A program made the translations under genes and the position numbers. This document shows, one piece after another, positions 28,294-48,292 of a stretch of DNA of 55,388 nucleotides (positions are counted from its first letter, which is position 1; the number at the start of each line of letters is the position of its first letter). This DNA is from Planctomycetota bacterium (GTDB lineage Bacteria > Planctomycetota > Brocadiia > Brocadiales > Scalinduaceae). The notes under the pieces are model-generated. The model had not been told where the DNA came from. It saw only the letters and a list, made by a program, of their open reading frames with translations, and did not search any database. The stretch is from NCBI GenBank assembly GCA_022570935.1, contig JACZYU010000001.1, forward strand, positions 1 through 55,388. Direction: 5' to 3'.

Positions 28294-29106
28294 TCACACA
28301 ACACTTGCCAGTTCGTCCTTTAATTTCTCTGCTGATGGTATCCTGTTTGATGGATCCTCCTCAAGGAGTCCTAAAATTATTTCGTTCAATTTTTGTGGGA
28401 TTGCATTGTTAATCTCGATTGGTTGCTGGGCTGTTTCTGCCCGTACTTTACCTGTTAATACTTCGTACAATATCAATCCAATTGTATATAAATCAGTTCT
28501 GCCATCAATCTTCACCTGTTTCAGGACTGCCTTCTCACCTCTTGCATCTGTAACATTTTTCAATAAGTTATTCATCTGCTTTTGTTCAGGCGATGCATAT
28601 TCTATGGTTACACCTTTTATTAGTTCTCCTGTTTTTATGGTTAGTTCTAAATCAATTAACCCTATTATTCCTGTACTGGGATTAAGAATAAGATGGCCCG
28701 GCTTAACGTCTGCATGGACATATCCTTTTTTGTGTAAATATTGCAAGGGTTCGACGACACTTAAAATGTATTTGATTACATTTTTCATTTCGTGTGAATC
28801 TGGCACTCCCTTCTGCTTGTAATACTCTACTAAATCCTCACCTTCAAAATTCTGTAAGACAATGAAGTGTTCATTCAATACTAATTTGTTATTTTCAAAT
28901 AATTCAGTCCATCCAAAATCATATCTTTTTGGAATCTGTGGATGAGAGAATTTCTTGAGTACAGTATACTCACTTTCATAACTGTAAGTAGGCGAATACT
29001 TCATTCCCCATTCACTATCTCCTAGTTCAGCTAAAACAGCATAATTTGCCCTGTGGCCTGGTCTGTATTTAAAGCTTTCAAATTGATATTTTCCTAATTT
29101 ATACAT
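28294..29106 (-). CDS. Protein kinase-like protein (atypical N-lobe), first copy
   Basis: The 270-residue protein is a Ser/Thr-kinase fold. YVHADVKPGHLIL carries the catalytic Asp, LIDLELTI replaces the DFG motif (Asp kept, Gly changed to Glu), and YASPEQ stands for APE. The C-lobe motifs DGRTDLYTIGLILYEVLTG and LLEEDPSNRIPSAEKL are clear. The N-lobe is short, lacks a glycine-rich loop, and has only a possible lysine in GMKY and a glutamate in YESEY. It may phosphorylate a protein, a small molecule or be a pseudokinase. ATG 29106 follows GAAGGGA by six bases. A paralogue at 47465 lies on the other side of the ammonium island with phosphoesterases. Confidence 0.75.
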   Translation of the reverse strand: MYKLGKYQFESFKYRPGHRANYAVLAELGDSEWGMKYSPTYSYESEYTVLKKFSHPQIPKRYDFGWTELFENNKLVLNEHFIVLQNFEGEDLVEYYKQKGVPDSHEMKNVIKYILSVVEPLQYLHKKGYVHADVKPGHLILNPSTGIIGLIDLELTIKTGELIKGVTIEYASPEQKQMNNLLKNVTDARGEKAVLKQVKIDGRTDLYTIGLILYEVLTGKVRAETAQQPIEINNAIPQKLNEIILGLLEEDPSNRIPSAEKLKDELASVV

Positions 29107-29182
29107 ACTGTTTCCCTTCAAAGTTCAACTTGGTCGAGCCAGAAGCAAAAAGGGGAGTAGACACGAATTACACGAATATATA

Positions 29183-29487: not shown

Positions 29488-29955
29488 CTACTCTTTCTTT
29501 TTATATTTTTCATGGCAATCGTCACATGTTTGTTGTAATTTTTCGTATTCGATGTTCAAACTGACCATCTCTCTTGATTCAGCTGCCTCTACCACTGCAA
29601 GCGATTGGAAATGAAAAAAGGTATCAAACATGATAAAATCCTTTGGTAATTCTACTTTTCTTTTACCTGTAAAGAGTAATGGGGAAGTACTTTTCAGCAA
29701 CATGGCATATTTGCATATATCACCCCAATTTTGACATTCAATTGACTCTGCCAATGCATCGTCATATTCATCAAGAGATTTCATATGCATCCTGAATTTA
29801 GACACACCTTCATAAATAGTATTGTCTACTATATCCGGAACTGTCTCTCTCACTTCTTCCTCTCTCTTTTCAATCTTTTTGTCCTTGTCTATAGAAAACA
29901 TAAAAAGCGGCACAAGTACCATTATCAAGACTACGATGACCCAAAACCCTTTCAT
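29488..29955 (-). CDS. Class II cytochrome c-like protein, membrane-anchored
   Basis: The 155-residue protein has an N-terminal signal/anchor (about residues 4-21) and a helical body. A single haem-binding motif CDDCH (CxxCH) lies close to the C-terminus, the position typical of cytochrome c-prime/c556 four-helix bundles. The function in the periplasm is unknown; such proteins bind NO or carry electrons. It is downstream of the Cache/CheD-like and PII genes in the same direction, with about 125 bases between, so a weak operon link is possible. Confidence 0.65.
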   Translation of the reverse strand: MKGFWVIVVLIMVLVPLFMFSIDKDKKIEKREEEVRETVPDIVDNTIYEGVSKFRMHMKSLDEYDDALAESIECQNWGDICKYAMLLKSTSPLLFTGKRKVELPKDFIMFDTFFHFQSLAVVEAAESREMVSLNIEYEKLQQTCDDCHEKYKKKE

Positions 29956-30080: not shown

Positions 30081-30455
30081 CTAAATCTCATCGAAGAAAC
30101 CTTCCTCAGTTGAGTCTCCTAAATGCCTTTTACCTGAATGAATATGGATTGCATTATCTAAGGGAAATATGTATATCCGCCCATCAGCTCCAATGCCAGT
30201 TTTAGTAACATTTCTGATAGTTTCTATGACACTATCGACCCTGTAATCTGCTACAACAAATTCTAATTCTACTCTTTTAACAGCATCTATCCTTTGCTGA
30301 TAGATTTTTCCTCGATAGACTTGCTTAACGGTTTTTTTTTGTTCTCCATATCCAGCGGCTTGTTTGGTCGAAATCCCATGATACCCTTTACGTGTTAATA
30401 CGTCCTTCAGGTCTAAAACCCTTTCAGGTCTTAAAATTACCTTGATAAGTTTCAT
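30081..30455 (-). CDS. Divergent PII-family protein
   Basis: The 124-residue protein keeps the PII fold start KVILRPERV, Gln39 (GYGEQKK), a T-loop with YRGKIYQ where the tyrosine is shifted to position 52, and a B-loop TGIGADGRIY. The T-loop after the tyrosine reads QRIDAVKRV, unlike the VDLLPKIK of the canonical copies, and the C-terminus has HSGKRHLGDS plus an acidic tail. It probably binds nucleotides but contacts a different partner. It is 44 bases downstream of the Cache/CheD-like gene and surely co-transcribed with it, with GAAGGGGGGG as ribosome site. Confidence 0.8.
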   Translation of the reverse strand: MKLIKVILRPERVLDLKDVLTRKGYHGISTKQAAGYGEQKKTVKQVYRGKIYQQRIDAVKRVELEFVVADYRVDSVIETIRNVTKTGIGADGRIYIFPLDNAIHIHSGKRHLGDSTEEGFFDEI

Positions 30456-30499: not shown

Positions 30500-32065
30500 T
30501 TATATGTTGTTATAGTTACTTAGCCTTTTTACAATTTCTCCAAAATCTGGAACGTGCTTATACTCATCGGTAAAATTCATGCTATAGCTTTTTCCCTTCC
30601 ATCGGCTCCAAACTTGGTCATCCCTGTAATCAGAAATAATATCCACTATATTAAATTTATCTTTGAAAAGCACCTTGATTTGAGACAATTCAACTTCATC
30701 ATCAATAAGTTTACGAATTATGTTTTTGAAGCTGGAATTATGCGTGGCAAACACTCCAAACCGTAAAAACGATTTTTCATATTGAATAATGTCATATCTA
30801 TTTATACTGTTCATGACAGTGTTCACAAAATCAGTATATCTTTCTTTCAAAAATATCTTCGTGAAAAAACCTATGTTCTTGTAGGCCTCATCGGTTGGAG
30901 TGATGTGAATTAAATAGCCAAATTTGCCCGGATAACTGATTGTCAAGGCTGTGCAGGTAGCAACTCCTTCAGTATAGAGTAGTTCGCCGTTTTTGGTTTT
31001 TTGAATCTCTTTAAAATCAACCTTAACAAAATTATTATTTTGCTTCCAACTGGGTAGAAATATTTTCTGCTTATCATTTGGATAATGGTAATTTGCCAGA
31101 TATTCACAGACTTTGTCAAAAAGCTCCTTTTCTCTACTACGATATATTTCAGTAATAATTTCATCTTCATCGATTTCAGCTATAATAATCCATATTGACC
31201 CCTCGTAATCAAACTGCTCGTATGAACTAAAAACTCTCTTGTTGCGATAATCTTTGATAATTTTATTTCCTTTTTTCTCCTTTATAGCATTTCTAACAGC
31301 CTTTGTGTCGATTCGCTTGGTTAATATAGTGTTGTCATCAATAAATCTGGATTGAGTAAGCATCAATTCTTTATAATTAACTAAATAAACTTCACCTGTT
31401 CTCCCCAGATTTTTTCTGTCTGTCAAAATGTCGTTGATATCGTTAATAGGTAATTGTAAAACAATATAACCCAGTAATTGGTTGTTTTTAAAGACTGGAG
31501 TAATGAAAAAAGAAGCCGGTTCATCAGAAACTGAATAATACTCGAAATCAACAAACTCTATCTCTTTGCCTTTTATGTTTCTTATCTTCTCATATAGCGC
31601 TACATCATTAAACCGAGCTTCATGTATATTACCTAAAAAATCATCCTCTTTTTTAATAGTAAAAAAAATATCTCCATCAATATCTATAAACAAAAGGTCA
31701 TAAAATTTATCCAACTCAAGAACAAAGAACTTTTCCAGCGAAGCTTCCATAGTCATGTATTCAATACTGTTATAGGCATTATTTCTGTACAAGTAATAAA
31801 GTCTTTTAAAGGTGTTGAGAATGTCATTATTTTGAGAAATCTCCTCGCCCAATGTTTTTTGGTGGTCTAAATAACGTGTTACTTTGCCTTTTTTTTCTAT
31901 TCTAATTTTCTCTAATTTGGCAAAGGTCGCCTTCTTTGGATTGTATTTAAAATAAATATCATCAAAACAAAAGAAGAACCCTAAGGCAATTGTGAGTAGT
32001 GCTAACGGTACACCAATAAGAAATGTTTTTTTAGAAAAATATTTACGCTTCATCTTAGAACTCAT
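30500..32065 (-). CDS. Cache-domain sensor fused to a CheD-like domain
   Basis: The 521-residue protein has one N-terminal membrane helix (about residues 14-34) and a double-Cache-like sensor (about 50-300, with LGRTGEVYLVN and SYEQFDYEGSIWIIIAEI). Its C-terminal domain (about 355-480) resembles the glutamine deamidase CheD. In that domain Thr365, Cys371 and His387 (TEGVATC and YLIHITP) match the catalytic Thr-Cys-His of CheD by spacing (6 and 16; 6 and 17 in the Thermotoga enzyme). No second membrane helix or kinase domain is visible, so both domains would lie on one side of the membrane. It is divergent from the Amt/sensor-kinase operon and in an operon with a PII gene, which suggests a role in ammonium signalling. 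The CheD assignment is by eye. Confidence 0.55.
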   Translation of the reverse strand: MSSKMKRKYFSKKTFLIGVPLALLTIALGFFFCFDDIYFKYNPKKATFAKLEKIRIEKKGKVTRYLDHQKTLGEEISQNNDILNTFKRLYYLYRNNAYNSIEYMTMEASLEKFFVLELDKFYDLLFIDIDGDIFFTIKKEDDFLGNIHEARFNDVALYEKIRNIKGKEIEFVDFEYYSVSDEPASFFITPVFKNNQLLGYIVLQLPINDINDILTDRKNLGRTGEVYLVNYKELMLTQSRFIDDNTILTKRIDTKAVRNAIKEKKGNKIIKDYRNKRVFSSYEQFDYEGSIWIIIAEIDEDEIITEIYRSREKELFDKVCEYLANYHYPNDKQKIFLPSWKQNNNFVKVDFKEIQKTKNGELLYTEGVATCTALTISYPGKFGYLIHITPTDEAYKNIGFFTKIFLKERYTDFVNTVMNSINRYDIIQYEKSFLRFGVFATHNSSFKNIIRKLIDDEVELSQIKVLFKDKFNIVDIISDYRDDQVWSRWKGKSYSMNFTDEYKHVPDFGEIVKRLSNYNNI

Positions 32066-32520: not shown

Positions 32521-34137
32521 ATGAGCAACATAAAGAGCTGCAACAAGTATAAGAGGCAAATTTCAATTATCTTTATCAGTATGAGTGTGCTTACATTGAT
32601 TCTTTACCCGTATTATAATGTATATGCAGAAGCATCTCTACAATTGATCCAGAAAAAACTTGATTTTATCTGGATTATTGTTGCTGCCAGTATGGTCTTT
32701 TTCATGCAGGTGGGGTTTACGGCATTTGAAGCCGGTGCAGTACAGGCAAAGAATGCTATAAGCGTTTCCATAAAAAATATATTGAATTTCTTAGTAAGTT
32801 CCATCGCATACTTTATCGTAGGTTTTGGGATCATGTTCGGCTTGAGCTATGAGGGTTATGTGGGTATAAGTAATTTTCTGTTATATGGTATTGATACCCA
32901 TGTGACTTCTTTAGGGTATGCCTTTGTGTTCTTCCAACTTGTATTTGCAGGCACTGCAGCCACTATTACATCTGGCGCCTTCGCTGAAAGGGCAAAACTT
33001 TTAATGCACATCTGTACTACCATTTTTGTGGTCTGTCTGATTTATCCCGTCTTTGGTCATTGGGCATGGGGACATTTATTTCATCCCAATCAATATGGTT
33101 GGCTTGGAAGAATGGGTTTTATAGATTTTGCGGGTTCTACGGTAGTTCATTCTATAAGTGGCTGGGTTGCTTTGTCAGGCGCCATTGTGCTTGGCCCAAG
33201 AATGGGTAAGTTTAATCCTGATGGTACCGTGAACAGGATGTATGGACACAATCTTCCCCTGGCTACAATAGGCACATTCTTCCTGTGGTTTGGCTGGTTT
33301 GGCTTTAATGGAGGTTCTCTTTTGCGTGCTGATACAAGTATCGGGTTGGTGATTATCAATACAACCCTTTCGGGAGCAGTAGCGGGAATTGCTGCAGCGG
33401 TTTTTGGAAAAGTGAAAAACAAGAGATTGGATGCGGCAGAGATACTTTTAGGAATTATGGGAGGATTAGTTGCTATTGGCGCAGGTTGCAGTAGGGTAAG
33501 TTCCGTATATGCATGCATTGTTGGATTATGCGCAGGTATTATTGTAATATTGGCTAAGGATTTTATCGAAAAGGTATTAAAAGTGGATGACCCTGTAGGT
33601 GCAGTTCCCGTCCACGGTTTTTGTGGTGCCTGGGGTACCTTAGCCGTTAGCCTGTTTACTCCTGCATCTGCATTTTCAATGACAAATTTCAATCGGCTTT
33701 TACAAGTTGGCGTGCAATGTCTTGGAATTATTGTGGCATTCGCCTGGGCTTTTTCGTTGGGTCTTTTGTTTTTCTGGTGCCTGAAGAAACTGGTAGGTAT
33801 CAGGGTCAGTGCGGAAGAAGAGGTAAAGGGATTAAATCTCAGTGAATATGAAGATGTTACATCCTGGCTTGATTTTGTTAAGATCTCAAAAGTTCAAGAT
33901 ATGAATACGGCATTACAGGGTAAAATAAAAGAAAGAACAAGAGAGCTGGAGCACATAAAGGAAAATCTCGAAGAAGATGTGAAGAAACGTACTTCAGAAT
34001 TAAAGGAGTCACGAGATGAGTTGGAGAAAAAAGTTGGTCAATTAGAGAACTTTGCAAAAGTTGCTGTCGGAAGAGAATTAAAGATGAAGAAAATGGAAGA
34101 AGAACTTAAATCTTCAAAAAATAAAAATCATAAATAA
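32521..34137 (+). CDS. amt: Amt-C, ammonium transporter with coiled-coil tail (sensor partner)
   Basis: The 538-residue protein has a signal peptide (to about residue 37) and a full Amt domain. WIIVAASMVFFMQVGFTAFE is its first helix, DFAGSTVVHSISGW holds the first pore His and VPVHGFCGAWGTL the second. From about residue 450 it continues as a highly charged coiled coil (KERTRELEHIKENLEEDVKKR...) ending with NFAKVAVGRELKMKKMEEEL, the linker sequence commonly found before PAS or histidine-kinase domains. Amt-kinase fusions are known as ammonium sensors in anammox bacteria. Here the gene stops (TAA 34135-34137) and the sensor kinase starts three bases later in the same frame. It probably senses ammonium rather than only transporting it. 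Confidence 0.9.
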   Translation: MSNIKSCNKYKRQISIIFISMSVLTLILYPYYNVYAEASLQLIQKKLDFIWIIVAASMVFFMQVGFTAFEAGAVQAKNAISVSIKNILNFLVSSIAYFIVGFGIMFGLSYEGYVGISNFLLYGIDTHVTSLGYAFVFFQLVFAGTAATITSGAFAERAKLLMHICTTIFVVCLIYPVFGHWAWGHLFHPNQYGWLGRMGFIDFAGSTVVHSISGWVALSGAIVLGPRMGKFNPDGTVNRMYGHNLPLATIGTFFLWFGWFGFNGGSLLRADTSIGLVIINTTLSGAVAGIAAAVFGKVKNKRLDAAEILLGIMGGLVAIGAGCSRVSSVYACIVGLCAGIIVILAKDFIEKVLKVDDPVGAVPVHGFCGAWGTLAVSLFTPASAFSMTNFNRLLQVGVQCLGIIVAFAWAFSLGLLFFWCLKKLVGIRVSAEEEVKGLNLSEYEDVTSWLDFVKISKVQDMNTALQGKIKERTRELEHIKENLEEDVKKRTSELKESRDELEKKVGQLENFAKVAVGRELKMKKMEEELKSSKNKNHK

Positions 34138-34140
34138 TAC

Positions 34141-37100
34141 ATGAAACTAGGAACCAAATGTATCTTATCAATCAGCCTTATTGTAACATTGGTACTGGGA
34201 ATTAGCTTTACTTGGATCATTAAAAGGCAGGACTATTTGTTAAAAGAAGAAATAAAGAAACAGGCAAAACTTCTTGTTGAGCAAATAGAAATTGCCCACA
34301 GCTATTTAGCAGAGACTCAGGATGCTGTTAATACTGATGGTATGAGCAGCAAGACGGATTTTAGAGATTTGCATCCTTCAAAAATTGGTATGGAATTTTT
34401 CGGCCGTATGAGAGAAAACGAGTTATACACTGTTCGGCTGATAACCCTGAAAGACAGAGACAAAAATATTACACCGGACGCTCTTGAAGCAGCAGTCCTG
34501 AAAAACATGGAAGGGCAAAAATCAAAAGACGCATTTTATGGTGAGTCGTCATATGTAAGAGATGAGAAAGTATTTCGTTATATTGCTCCCCTCTATATCG
34601 AGGAAACCTGTCTCAAGTGCCACGGAGAACCATCAGGAATGGCAATCATTCCTGAATACAAGACAGAGGTATATAAGGCAGGTGATTTATGGGGAGTCGT
34701 AAGTGTTGTTGCTCCTTTAAAGCTCATTCACGCAAGTTTGAAGGCAGACGCAATAATACTTATCTGTATTGCATCGGCTTCCATTGGTGTTATTATTTTT
34801 ATTACATACATATTGATTAGACGGTTGATCACAAAGCCTATCTCAAAGATATCAAATGTGATGAATGCCATTGCCAGTGGTGATCTCGACAAGAGGATAA
34901 ATATTTTTTCAAGGGACGAAATTGGAATGTTGGCTATCTCTATTAATAAGATGACAGAAGACCTGCAGAAGACTACAGTGTCCAAGGCTTATGTAGATAA
35001 CATAATTGAAAGTATGATCGATACGTTAGTTGTGGTAGATCAAAATGGCAAGATAAAGACCGTAAATAAATCAACTCTGGATGTGTTAGGTTATGAAAAA
35101 AAGGACTTAATCGGTAATGATATAAATATGATCATGGATGACAAAGTTAACCCCATCACGAACCGGGGCTGGAGTGATATCTGGAAGGACGATGTGTTAA
35201 AGGATTACGATATCATATATCGTACTCATAAAAGAGAAGATATACCTATGAATTTCAGTGGACGTATAATGCGAGATAGCGATGGGAATGTGGTGGATAT
35301 CGTTGGTGTCGCCAGGGATATGAGGCAGACAAAAAAGCACATTAGAGAATTGTCCGACTTTAGAGAAGCAACTTTGTATATGCTGGATGACCTTGAGAAA
35401 ACGCGTACAGAATTAGAAAGAGAACAGAAGAAACTCGAGGTGATAGTAACTGGAATCGGTGCTTACTTGTGTCTCATAGATAAAGATATGAAGATTACGT
35501 GGGGTAACAAACCCTTCGAGAAACAGTTTGGGAGGGTAAATGGTTTTAAAGAGAATGCTTGTAATAAAATTTTTGGTTGCGGTAATGTACCCCCAGAGGA
35601 CTGTACTACAAAACGTGTGTTTAAGAGCGGTAAAATAGAAGAAACAAAAAGGTTGGTGATTGGTAAAGATAATGAAAAGAAATATTATCATTTTATTGGT
35701 TCACCGATAAAGGACGATAAAGGAAAGATTACCCATGTGCTTGAGTTGGTTCAAGATATTACCAAAATGTGGCAGATGGAACACCAGAAAGAAATTATTT
35801 ACAATATCAATAAAATCATTACGTCGGGTCTTATGTCAGACATGTTTAAGTCAATAAGTAACGAGCTTAAACGTATTATTGAATTTGATAGGATTAGTAT
35901 TGCCCTGATTGATGAAAAAACACAAAAATTTGAGGTCGTGGCAATAGATAAAGCGTATGACAACTCGACAATCAATGAGGGCGATTGGTTTCCAAAAGAA
36001 GGGAGCCTATTAGAGAAGATAACCTTTACCGGGAGTCCGTTTATTGTGAGAGATACTTCAAAAAGTACCTTCTGGTCAGATCGTATGTTGCTCAAAGAAG
36101 GTGTAAAGTCTCGACTCGGTTTCCCTCTTGAATATAAGGGCAGTATTATCGGAACGATTAACTTTGGAAGTATGAAAGAGAATAACTTTTCAAAAAAACA
36201 TTTTACAATACTGGAACAGATTGCAATGCAACTGGCTATTGCCATAGAAAATACCAGATTATTTGCAAAAACGAAGGCGTCAGAGAAAGGATATAAGGAC
36301 CTTTATGACAATGCTCCAGATATTTATATAACAAACGACGAAAATGGGATTATAATCAATTGCAACCAAACTGGAGCAGAGATTTTAGGATACAAAAAAG
36401 AAGAACTTGTAGGGAAACATATTTTTGATTTTCAAACAGAGAAAAACAGGGATGTGATGAAGAAATTACTACCTAAACGTCTAAGTGGGCAGCTTGTAAA
36501 AGGATTAGAATTGCAGCTGGTAAAAAAAGATGGGAGTGTTATAGATGTTAGCTTAAACGATAGTCATATTTGTGATGATAGTGGCAGAATTATCGCTACC
36601 AGATCAGTTTATAGGGATATAACTGCAAAGAAAAGTCTGGAATCACAACTTTTAGAGGCGGAAAAGTTGGCCACGACAGGAAGAGTTGTTGCAAGTGTTG
36701 CTCATGAGATTAATAACCCACTGGAAGGTATCATCAATTACCTCCAACTACTACTAGAAAGGATAGATGATTATGAGAGGAAGAAATATGTGGAACTTGT
36801 TATGGAAGGTATTTACAGGATTGCAGGAATTGTAAGGAGTCTGTTAGAGGCTAATCAGAATGTTACGGAAGAAGAAGGCGATCACAGTATTAATTATCAC
36901 ATACAAAGCGTTGTAGATTTATTTCAAAAAGAATTATCTCAAGCAAAAGTAACAGTAAAACAAATATTTGACAAAAAAATTCCCAAGGTGAGATGCCAGC
37001 CAAACCAATTAGAACAGGTATTTACAAATCTTATACTTAATTCTATTGATTCAATGCCACATGGCGGGATTATCAAAATAACTACGCAGGTTAAAGATGA

Positions 37101-37335
37101 TAAGTTGCTGATTGAGTTTGCCGATAATGGTTGTGGAATACCAGAAAAAGATTTAACTAATATCTTCGAACCTTTTTTTAGTACAAAAAAAGGAACTGGC
37201 ACAGGACTGGGTTTGTGGATATGTTATAATATCATTATTGGACATGCTGGAAAGATTAACGTTAAAAGCAACCTTGATGTAGGAACAACTTTCCAGGTTA
37301 TACTGCCTCTTAAAAAAAGACTAATTATTAATTGA
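34141..37335 (+). CDS. NtrB-type sensor histidine kinase with haem-like, PAS and GAF domains
   Basis: The 1064-residue kinase has, in order: a membrane helix (about 7-27); a Tll0287-like (DUF3365) extracytoplasmic domain with CLKCH at 157-161, a possible c-type haem site; a second helix (about 202-224); HAMP; two PAS domains (about 280-400 and 430-550); a GAF domain (about 560-715); a third PAS (about 720-835). HisKA follows with His855 in VASVAHEINNP, then a HATPase domain (NLILNSIDSM, DNGCGI, GTGLGLWI). No ribosome site precedes ATG 34141; it starts one codon after the Amt-C stop in the same frame, so it depends on coupled re-initiation or read-through. Its partner is very likely the NtrC-type regulator at 38048. 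Confidence 0.92.
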   Translation: MKLGTKCILSISLIVTLVLGISFTWIIKRQDYLLKEEIKKQAKLLVEQIEIAHSYLAETQDAVNTDGMSSKTDFRDLHPSKIGMEFFGRMRENELYTVRLITLKDRDKNITPDALEAAVLKNMEGQKSKDAFYGESSYVRDEKVFRYIAPLYIEETCLKCHGEPSGMAIIPEYKTEVYKAGDLWGVVSVVAPLKLIHASLKADAIILICIASASIGVIIFITYILIRRLITKPISKISNVMNAIASGDLDKRINIFSRDEIGMLAISINKMTEDLQKTTVSKAYVDNIIESMIDTLVVVDQNGKIKTVNKSTLDVLGYEKKDLIGNDINMIMDDKVNPITNRGWSDIWKDDVLKDYDIIYRTHKREDIPMNFSGRIMRDSDGNVVDIVGVARDMRQTKKHIRELSDFREATLYMLDDLEKTRTELEREQKKLEVIVTGIGAYLCLIDKDMKITWGNKPFEKQFGRVNGFKENACNKIFGCGNVPPEDCTTKRVFKSGKIEETKRLVIGKDNEKKYYHFIGSPIKDDKGKITHVLELVQDITKMWQMEHQKEIIYNINKIITSGLMSDMFKSISNELKRIIEFDRISIALIDEKTQKFEVVAIDKAYDNSTINEGDWFPKEGSLLEKITFTGSPFIVRDTSKSTFWSDRMLLKEGVKSRLGFPLEYKGSIIGTINFGSMKENNFSKKHFTILEQIAMQLAIAIENTRLFAKTKASEKGYKDLYDNAPDIYITNDENGIIINCNQTGAEILGYKKEELVGKHIFDFQTEKNRDVMKKLLPKRLSGQLVKGLELQLVKKDGSVIDVSLNDSHICDDSGRIIATRSVYRDITAKKSLESQLLEAEKLATTGRVVASVAHEINNPLEGIINYLQLLLERIDDYERKKYVELVMEGIYRIAGIVRSLLEANQNVTEEEGDHSINYHIQSVVDLFQKELSQAKVTVKQIFDKKIPKVRCQPNQLEQVFTNLILNSIDSMPHGGIIKITTQVKDDKLLIEFADNGCGIPEKDLTNIFEPFFSTKKGTGTGLGLWICYNIIIGHAGKINVKSNLDVGTTFQVILPLKKRLIIN

Positions 37336-39828: not shown

Positions 39829-40263
39829 ATGAAAAGGGTAACGGCATTTATAAAGCCAATGGCAGTGGATATATTAGGAGATTATTTTGATAGGATAGGA
39901 TATCCAGTATTAAAGATGTGTATAAAGGATCACAGCCAGGTTGCAACCAGATCTATTTTCTGGCGTGATGATGAGTATATCGTAGATTTAATAAAGAATG
40001 TCAGGATAGAAGTTGTTTTAGAAGAAAACGTCGTAGATGAAGCAGTGCAGTACATAAGTAAGTTTTTATATGAAAAAGATGGTAATAATGAGTATGAATT
40101 TGCGTTACGGCTAAAGTCAAGCATGGTTAAAAAGAATATTATGACAGAAGATGGTAGATGGACATCATTGGCGTCAAGGCAAGAGCAGGTTATTACAGAA
40201 GAAGAACCTGTAGCGAAACAACTAGAAGTTTTAGAAATTGTAGATGCTGGACCTGGATATTAA
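39829..40263 (+). CDS. Degenerate PII-family protein
   Basis: The 144-residue protein keeps the PII N-terminus (MKRVTAFIKPMAV), the tail of the T-loop (WRDDEYIVDL with Tyr50) and the following strand NVRIEVVLEE. It lacks the GHGxQ turn and the B-loop TGxIGDGKIF; the B-loop region reads KDGNNEYEFALRLKSS. Nucleotide and 2-oxoglutarate binding are therefore probably lost, while the trimer fold and Amt contact may remain. It has a distinct C-terminal tail rich in Glu. It is the first gene of a sigma-54-like unit with a normal PII and an Amt, with a good ribosome site (AGAAGGGAG). Confidence 0.75.
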   Translation: MKRVTAFIKPMAVDILGDYFDRIGYPVLKMCIKDHSQVATRSIFWRDDEYIVDLIKNVRIEVVLEENVVDEAVQYISKFLYEKDGNNEYEFALRLKSSMVKKNIMTEDGRWTSLASRQEQVITEEEPVAKQLEVLEIVDAGPGY

Positions 40264-40303
40264 TCCATAGATTTAATAGAAATATTATTTGGGGGGAAAT
40301 AAA

Positions 40304-47464: not shown

Positions 47465-48292
47465 ATGTACAATATAAAGAACTATACATTTGGTTCCTTC
47501 AAATCAGTCGCTGATATGCATAAGTCAAATTATGCAATCCTGGAAAACGAAGATTCATTAGGCGTAGAATCTTTAGGTATAAAATACTGTCCACACATAA
47601 GCTTTGAAGATGAATTTTCCATTTTGCAACAATTAGACCATAAGCAGATTCCCAAGGCTTATGATTATGGCTATGAGACTATGTTTAAGGATAATAAGGT
47701 CGTACTTAAACAACACTTTATTGTCCTAGACCATATGAGCAGTACAGATCTAGTCGGTTACTTCAAAGAAAAAACAGCTCAGGATTTCCAAGGCCAGATA
47801 GAAAATATTATTAAATGCTTTATAAGCGCTTGTGATCCTCTGGATTATTTACATTCAAAAGGTTTCATTCACTGTGATCTGAAACCCGGCCATCTGATGA
47901 TGGATCCGGATACAAGCACAGTTTATTTAATCGATTATGAGCTTGCGATAAAAAAATCAGATGTTTTAAAAGGTATTAGTATGGATTATGCTTCTCCTGA
48001 ACAACTTTCATTGCTGGTACAGCTGAGAGATACACCTGAAAATGTCCCTCTGGAAGCAATGGCATTCTTCTTGTCCATTGATGGTAAGGCAGATATATAT
48101 TCATTAGGCGCTATACTCTATGAAATCCTAACCAGCAAAAAATGGAGCGAAACAAAACTTCCGCCAATAAATCTTAATAAATCGGTTCCTCAAAAACTGG
48201 AAGATATCGTAATGTCAACATTGGAGGAAGATCCTGCTGACAGGGTTTCCACGGCAAAACAACTAAAACAATTATTAGAAAATCTAATATGA
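47465..48292 (+). CDS. Protein kinase-like protein (atypical N-lobe), second copy
   Basis: The 275-residue paralogue of the gene at 28294 has FIHCDLKPGHLMM (catalytic Asp), LIDYELAI in place of DFG, YASPEQ, DGKADIYSLGAILYEILTS and LEEDPADRVSTAKQL. Between YASPEQ and DGKAD both copies have an unusual insertion (here LSLLVQLRDTPENVPLEAMA). A possible lysine lies in GIKYC. It begins an apparent operon with two metallophosphoesterases, starting 8 bases before the first, so a kinase and phosphatases are made together. There is no obvious ribosome site. Confidence 0.78.
   Translation: MYNIKNYTFGSFKSVADMHKSNYAILENEDSLGVESLGIKYCPHISFEDEFSILQQLDHKQIPKAYDYGYETMFKDNKVVLKQHFIVLDHMSSTDLVGYFKEKTAQDFQGQIENIIKCFISACDPLDYLHSKGFIHCDLKPGHLMMDPDTSTVYLIDYELAIKKSDVLKGISMDYASPEQLSLLVQLRDTPENVPLEAMAFFLSIDGKADIYSLGAILYEILTSKKWSETKLPPINLNKSVPQKLEDIVMSTLEEDPADRVSTAKQLKQLLENLI

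What the first reader, a model, noticed from the sequence alone, without database searches (positions are those of the whole stretch)
30500..32065. Cache sensor fused to a CheD-like glutamine deamidase, in operon with a PII gene
The C-terminal domain has Thr365, Cys371 and His387 at CheD-like spacing behind a Cache sensor, with no kinase or methyl-accepting domain. CheD normally deamidates chemoreceptor glutamines. A sensor-linked form co-encoded with a divergent PII, beside Amt genes, could modify PII or Amt proteins. With only one membrane helix, the CheD-like domain would be extracytoplasmic, which is odd. This may be a new signalling architecture.
Basis: inference. Interest (0 to 1): 0.8.

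Follow-up and report, generated by a model that had tools for sequence, protein, structure and literature searches.

The report
Exported sensor with CheD-like enzyme domain
This gene makes a protein that sits outside the cell membrane and joins a small-molecule sensor to a domain shaped like CheD, the enzyme that tunes chemotaxis receptors from inside the cell; in several unrelated bacteria the same protein is encoded beside a chemotaxis receptor, which suggests receptors may also be chemically adjusted from the outside.

Summary
The 521-aa product of 30500-32065(-) is an N-terminal membrane helix, a dCache_1 sensor and a C-terminal domain whose AlphaFold model (pLDDT 89) has T. maritima CheD (2F9Z) as its best PDB match (Foldseek E 2e-7), followed by NTAN1, CNF-type and YfiH cysteine hydrolases. 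Thr365, Cys371 and His387 are invariant in 31 of 31 homologues; Cys371 is the only invariant Cys. Homologues carry a membrane anchor, signal peptide or lipobox-like Cys and no second membrane helix, so the CheD-like domain is extracytoplasmic. Pfam has no model that matches it.

The proposed PII/Amt role is not supported: no other homologue has a PII or Amt gene nearby. In Scalindua the recurring neighbour is a cytochrome c'-like protein. Outside anammox bacteria, 9 of 16 loci, in four lineages, lie within two genes of a methyl-accepting chemoreceptor, mostly with a very long extracytoplasmic helical region, six also beside cheW (expected by chance 0.2 of 16).

Best reading: a new extracytoplasmic branch of the CheD/CNF1/YfiH cysteine-hydrolase superfamily under Cache control, probably deamidating or binding extracytoplasmic receptor helices. 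Enzymatic activity, and any substrate in Scalindua, are unproven.

The parts
30500..32065 (-). Whole gene: exported dCache sensor fused to a CheD-like cysteine-hydrolase domain, 521 aa
31946..32032 (-). N-terminal membrane anchor (helix about residues 12-40), positively charged N-terminus, taken as N-in/C-out
   Evidence: hydropathy 2.44 at residue 16, no other TM-strength segment; helix 12-41 in the model
31178..31882 (-). dCache_1 ligand-sensing domain (residues 62-296)
   Evidence: Pfam PF02743 E=1.4e-16; Foldseek best matches are dCache receptor domains
30503..31048 (-). CheD-like domain (residues 340-521)
   Evidence: AF2 pLDDT 89.3, pTM 0.86; Foldseek 2f9z_C E=2.2e-7; profile top PDB hit 2f9z_C
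30953..30955 (-). Cys371 codon, predicted nucleophile (matches CheD Cys27)
   Evidence: invariant 31/31 and the only invariant Cys; HMM alignment to 2F9Z
30971..30973 (-). Thr365 codon (matches CheD Thr21)
   Evidence: invariant 31/31; alignment to 2F9Z
30905..30907 (-). His387 codon (matches CheD His44)
   Evidence: invariant 31/31; alignment to 2F9Z
29488..29955 (-). Cytochrome c'-like protein with N-terminal TM segment and CxxCH (CDDCH), two genes downstream; directly downstream in four other Scalindua genomes
30081..30455 (-). PII-family gene 44 bp downstream; local to this genome, not a conserved partner
   Evidence: Pfam P-II E=1.3e-17; absent near all other homologues

Best explanation
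The protein is an exported, membrane-anchored sensor enzyme. A dCache domain binds an unknown small molecule outside the cytoplasmic membrane and controls an attached CheD-like cysteine hydrolase (Thr/Cys/His). Shown by computation: exported architecture, CheD fold, invariant triad positions, purifying selection, and genomic linkage of relatives to chemoreceptors. Inferred: the domain hydrolyses side-chain amides (Gln to Glu) in, or binds to, helical extracytoplasmic regions of membrane receptors. In Desulfobacterota, Pirellulales and Nitrospinota the likely partner is the chemoreceptor encoded next door, so receptor output would be adjusted from outside by a second sensor. In Scalindua the partner is not encoded next door: it could be one of the genome's own chemoreceptors or an exported protein such as the cytochrome c'-like neighbour, but not the cytoplasmic PII.
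For: Fold: AF2 pLDDT 89, pTM 0.86, best PDB match CheD 2F9Z E=2.2e-7, TM 0.58/0.67, then NTAN1, CNF catalytic domains and YfiH. Sequence: profile top PDB hit is CheD with the triad in register (E=0.1; 0.32); hhalign to 53 CheDs 26.6 against a shuffled maximum of 19.7 in 150; the profile recovers a genuine CheD in a CheA-CheC-CheD operon at E=2.7e-4. Triad 31/31 invariant. Exported: one N-terminal hydrophobic segment only; cleavable-type signals in several, lipobox-like Cys in Brocadia/Kuenenia and Magnetococcales members. Chemoreceptor within two genes in 9 of 16 non-anammox loci, expected 0.2; lineage-collapsed P about 3e-5. All 28 carrier genomes encode MCPs. Seven linked MCPs compared have 420-560-residue, largely helical extracytoplasmic regions.
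Against: No activity is shown. The sequence similarity to CheD is below significance when the whole PDB is searched and covers only the active-site half. The other CheD hallmarks (GGA strand, TGG) are absent. No anammox locus, including the window's, has an adjacent MCP. In B. subtilis, CheD binding matters more than its deamidase activity (PMC3513319), so binding without catalysis is possible.
Confidence: 0.5

Rival explanations
1. The CheD-like domain is a non-catalytic or only secondarily catalytic binding module: the protein is a ligand-binding co-receptor that docks on an MCP or other receptor and changes its state by binding, as CheD does to B. subtilis receptors.
For: CheD's main role in B. 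subtilis is binding, not deamidation. Anchored Cache proteins without output domain are common in the same genomes.
Against: The whole triad is invariant in 31 of 31 proteins over very long distances, which is more than binding alone would demand.
Confidence: 0.25
2. It is an extracytoplasmic amidohydrolase on a non-receptor substrate, for instance peptidoglycan amides (YfiH/PgeF is in the same superfamily) or another exported protein, switched by the Cache domain.
For: Foldseek also matches YfiH and peptidoglycan editing factor. Anammox and some other members are not linked to MCPs.
Against: CheD is a much closer structural match than YfiH (E 2e-7 against 6e-3). MCP and CheW linkage in four lineages would be unexplained.
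Confidence: 0.2
3. One reading: it modifies the PII protein or Amt transporter encoded next door, linking Cache sensing to nitrogen control.
For: PII is 44 bp downstream on the same strand, and six Amt and four PII genes lie in the window.
Against: PII is cytoplasmic and the domain is not. No other homologue, including the 72% identical one (whose contig ends just upstream of the gene), has PII or Amt nearby.
Confidence: 0.04

Closest known systems
CheD chemoreceptor glutamine deamidase (Pfam PF03975; T. maritima 2F9Z)
   Same: Fold, order of secondary-structure elements, Thr-6-Cys-16/17-His placement, and (in non-anammox members) genetic linkage to MCP and CheW genes
   Different: Exported and fused behind a dCache sensor; no Pfam CheD match; lacks CheD's GGA strand and TGG motifs. 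The same genome has a separate canonical CheD in a che cluster (G000:C29)
CNF1/YfiH-like cysteine hydrolases (NTAN1, YfiH/PgeF, CNF catalytic domain)
   Same: Superfamily fold and Cys-His active site (PMC7022378)
   Different: Substrates, domain context and location differ; much weaker structural match than CheD
dCache_1 sensor proteins (histidine kinases, MCPs)
   Same: The sensor domain itself
   Different: Usual output domains are cytoplasmic, after a second TM; here the output domain stays outside

Membership tests
CheD (PF03975) | CheD fold | tested here: met
   AF2 model pLDDT 89; Foldseek best hit 2f9z_C E=2.2e-7, prob 1.00
CheD (PF03975) | Thr/Cys/His active-site residues in order and spacing | tested here: met
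   Invariant 31/31; aligned to Thr21/Cys27/His44 by profile
CheD (PF03975) | Triad clustered in space | tested here: inconclusive
   No coordinates available; strand register (Cys before strand 33-39, His in strand 43-49 of the hairpin) places them as in CheD
CheD (PF03975) | Pfam CheD model match over cut-off | tested here: not met
   No match at E<=1 for the window protein, nor among the 25 families shown for 22 members
CheD (PF03975) | Other conserved CheD motifs (GG before the second helix, TGG, LGSC, GG-H) | tested here: not met
   CheD columns G88/G89/G125/G126 at 90-100% have no counterpart in the family alignment
CheD (PF03975) | Cytoplasmic, acting on cytoplasmic MCP helices | tested here: not met
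   Location by sequence only: single N-terminal TM, signal peptide or lipobox-like Cys, no second TM
CheD (PF03975) | Glutamine deamidase activity | not testable with these tools
   Needs biochemistry
CNF1/YfiH-like cysteine hydrolase superfamily | Superfamily fold with Cys and His on neighbouring strands | tested here: met
   The top 20 Foldseek hits are all CheD, NTAN1, CNF catalytic domains or YfiH
dCache_1 sensor domain (PF02743) | Pfam match over cut-off and dCache fold | tested here: met
   61.2 bits against cut-off 45; Foldseek top hits dCache

The most novel reading that the evidence does not exclude
An extracytoplasmic covalent-adaptation system: an exported Cache-controlled CheD homologue deamidates glutamines in the long extracytoplasmic helical region of a partner chemoreceptor, so that one sensor rewrites the sensitivity of another from outside the cell. 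To my knowledge, covalent adaptation in described chemotaxis systems is cytoplasmic.
Probability: 0.3. Interest if true: 0.85.

Novelty: new variant of a known kind. Interest (0 to 1): 0.62.

Why it matters
CheD-type receptor modification is, to my knowledge, known only in the cytoplasm. A widespread, if rare, exported form under Cache control and linked to chemoreceptors would be a new place and a new input for receptor adaptation, and it gives a directly testable enzyme-substrate pair in Desulfobacterota. It also points to a domain that Pfam and NCBIfam models do not recognise.

Tried and rejected
Single-sequence searches of the PDB and of genome contigs found nothing; a profile was needed. 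NCBIfam gave nothing. No relative was found on plasmids. PII and Amt as conserved partners: rejected by tblastn of all fetched loci. A conserved operon partner in anammox: only the cytochrome c'-like gene in Scalindua, and upstream genes shared by three Brocadia/Kuenenia-type loci. Weak whole-genome hits L141 and L142 (E about 4e-4) were single fragments and were not followed. My first neighbour list missed a downstream MCP-like gene in L063, because that ORF runs off the locus; found on re-check. It is left out of the chance calculation because the signalling domain lies beyond the stored DNA. A literature search for Cache plus CheD fusions or extracytoplasmic CheD found no description in the open-access library; papers outside that library were not searched.

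Full report
What is there. The window lies in a Candidatus Scalindua-type anammox genome: its nearest relatives are Ca. Scalindua MAGs. The ORF at 30500-32065(-) encodes 521 aa: a charged N-terminus and one hydrophobic helix (about 12-40), a dCache_1 domain (62-296, E=1.4e-16) and a C-terminal domain with no Pfam or NCBIfam match.

The C-terminal domain. Thirteen full-length homologues were found in anammox genomes. A profile of their C-terminal domains then reached 21 loci in GTDB genomes from Planctomycetota, Desulfobacterota, Spirochaetota, Nitrospinota, Magnetococcales and a Thiomargarita MAG, and further searches added Desulfobacterota members. All full-length members share the same dCache plus C-terminal architecture. 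The family is rare and patchy: 8 of 392 Planctomycetota, 5 of 395 genomes of the L071 phylum with strong hits, 2 of 345 of the Spirochaetia phylum. Thr365, Gly367, Cys371, Thr372, Pro379, Phe382, Tyr384, His387, Asp392 and Tyr395 are invariant in 31 sequences, and Cys371 is the only invariant Cys. dN/dS against two Scalindua orthologues is about 0.1 in both domains.

Is it CheD-like? By sequence, the profile's top PDB hit is T. maritima CheD with Thr21/Cys27/His44 in register, but at E=0.1-0.3, not significant alone. A profile-profile comparison scores 26.6 against at most 19.7 in 150 column-shuffled controls, over the active-site half only. The profile also recovers a genuine CheD inside a CheA-CheC-CheD operon at E=2.7e-4 (that E-value is for one genome of 395 searched). 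By structure the answer is clear: AF2 pLDDT 89.3, pTM 0.86, best PDB match 2f9z_C at E=2.2e-7 with TM 0.58/0.67, then NTAN1, CNF catalytic domains and YfiH. These are the CNF1/YfiH-like cysteine hydrolases, in which Cys, His and a Ser/Thr form the active site (PMC7022378). The predicted order of strands and helices matches CheD (my reading). CheD's GGA and TGG motifs are missing. It is therefore a relative of CheD, not a member of Pfam CheD; the same genome has a separate canonical CheD in a che cluster.

Where is it? No segment after residue 100 reaches TM strength in the window protein, and several homologues have what read as cleavable signal peptides (L067, L070, L147) or a lipobox-like Cys (Brocadia/Kuenenia members, L069). 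This rests on sequence, not on an experiment.

Neighbours. In the window a PII gene follows by 44 bp, within an island of six Amt and four PII genes. Neither PII nor Amt is found by tblastn near any other homologue, while the cytochrome c'-like gene (29488-29955) is directly downstream in four other Scalindua genomes. The PII adjacency is therefore local. Outside anammox the gene lies within two genes of an MCP in nine of sixteen loci (L067, L068, L071, L144-L148, L153), and CheW is adjacent or next in six. From MCP counts 0.2 of 16 would be expected; collapsing by lineage leaves 4 of 11, P about 3e-5. The label needs at least four changes on the tree. A tenth locus, L063, has a similar receptor-like gene downstream that is cut by the end of the stored DNA. 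The linked MCPs compared (L067, L144-L148, L153) have extracytoplasmic regions of roughly 420-560 residues, largely helical with HBM/4HB-type matches in most; the Nitrospinia one (L068) instead has two dCache stretches. All 28 carrier genomes encode MCPs, a weak test because MCPs are common.

Mechanism. CheD deamidates glutamines in receptor helices (PMC7022378), and its binding to receptors can matter more than its catalysis (PMC3513319). The simplest extension is that the exported CheD-like domain modifies or binds extracytoplasmic helices of a receptor, under control of its own Cache domain. Shown: fold, invariant residues, topology by sequence, linkage. Inferred: catalysis, substrate, Cache control. 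For Scalindua itself the substrate is open.

Noticed in passing
window 22597-47046: Ammonium island: six Amt genes (22597, 26063, 32521, 40808, 43174, 45496) and four PII-family genes (25699, 30081, 39829 weak, 40289), with a sensor kinase and an NtrC-type regulator between them.
   Followed up: partly
window 32521-34137: Amt with an extra C-terminal coiled-coil-like tail, followed 3 bp later by a histidine kinase (34141-37335) with a Tll0287-like domain containing a CxxCH motif.
   Followed up: no
window 39829-40263: Very divergent PII-like protein (Pfam E=1.7e-4, below cut-off) beside a normal PII at 40289.
   Followed up: no
window 28294-29121 and 47465-48292: Two small Ser/Thr-kinase-like proteins (275 aa each) in and beside the Amt island.
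   Followed up: no
L002 and places: Anammox genomes carry many stand-alone membrane-anchored dCache proteins of about 340-350 aa with no output domain.
   Followed up: no
L058 1811-2038: 75-aa ORF downstream of the closest homologue resembles a dCache end plus TM segment, perhaps a receptor remnant.
   Followed up: partly
L144-L148, L153, L063, L067: Linked chemoreceptors have unusually long, internally repetitive helical extracytoplasmic regions.
   Followed up: partly
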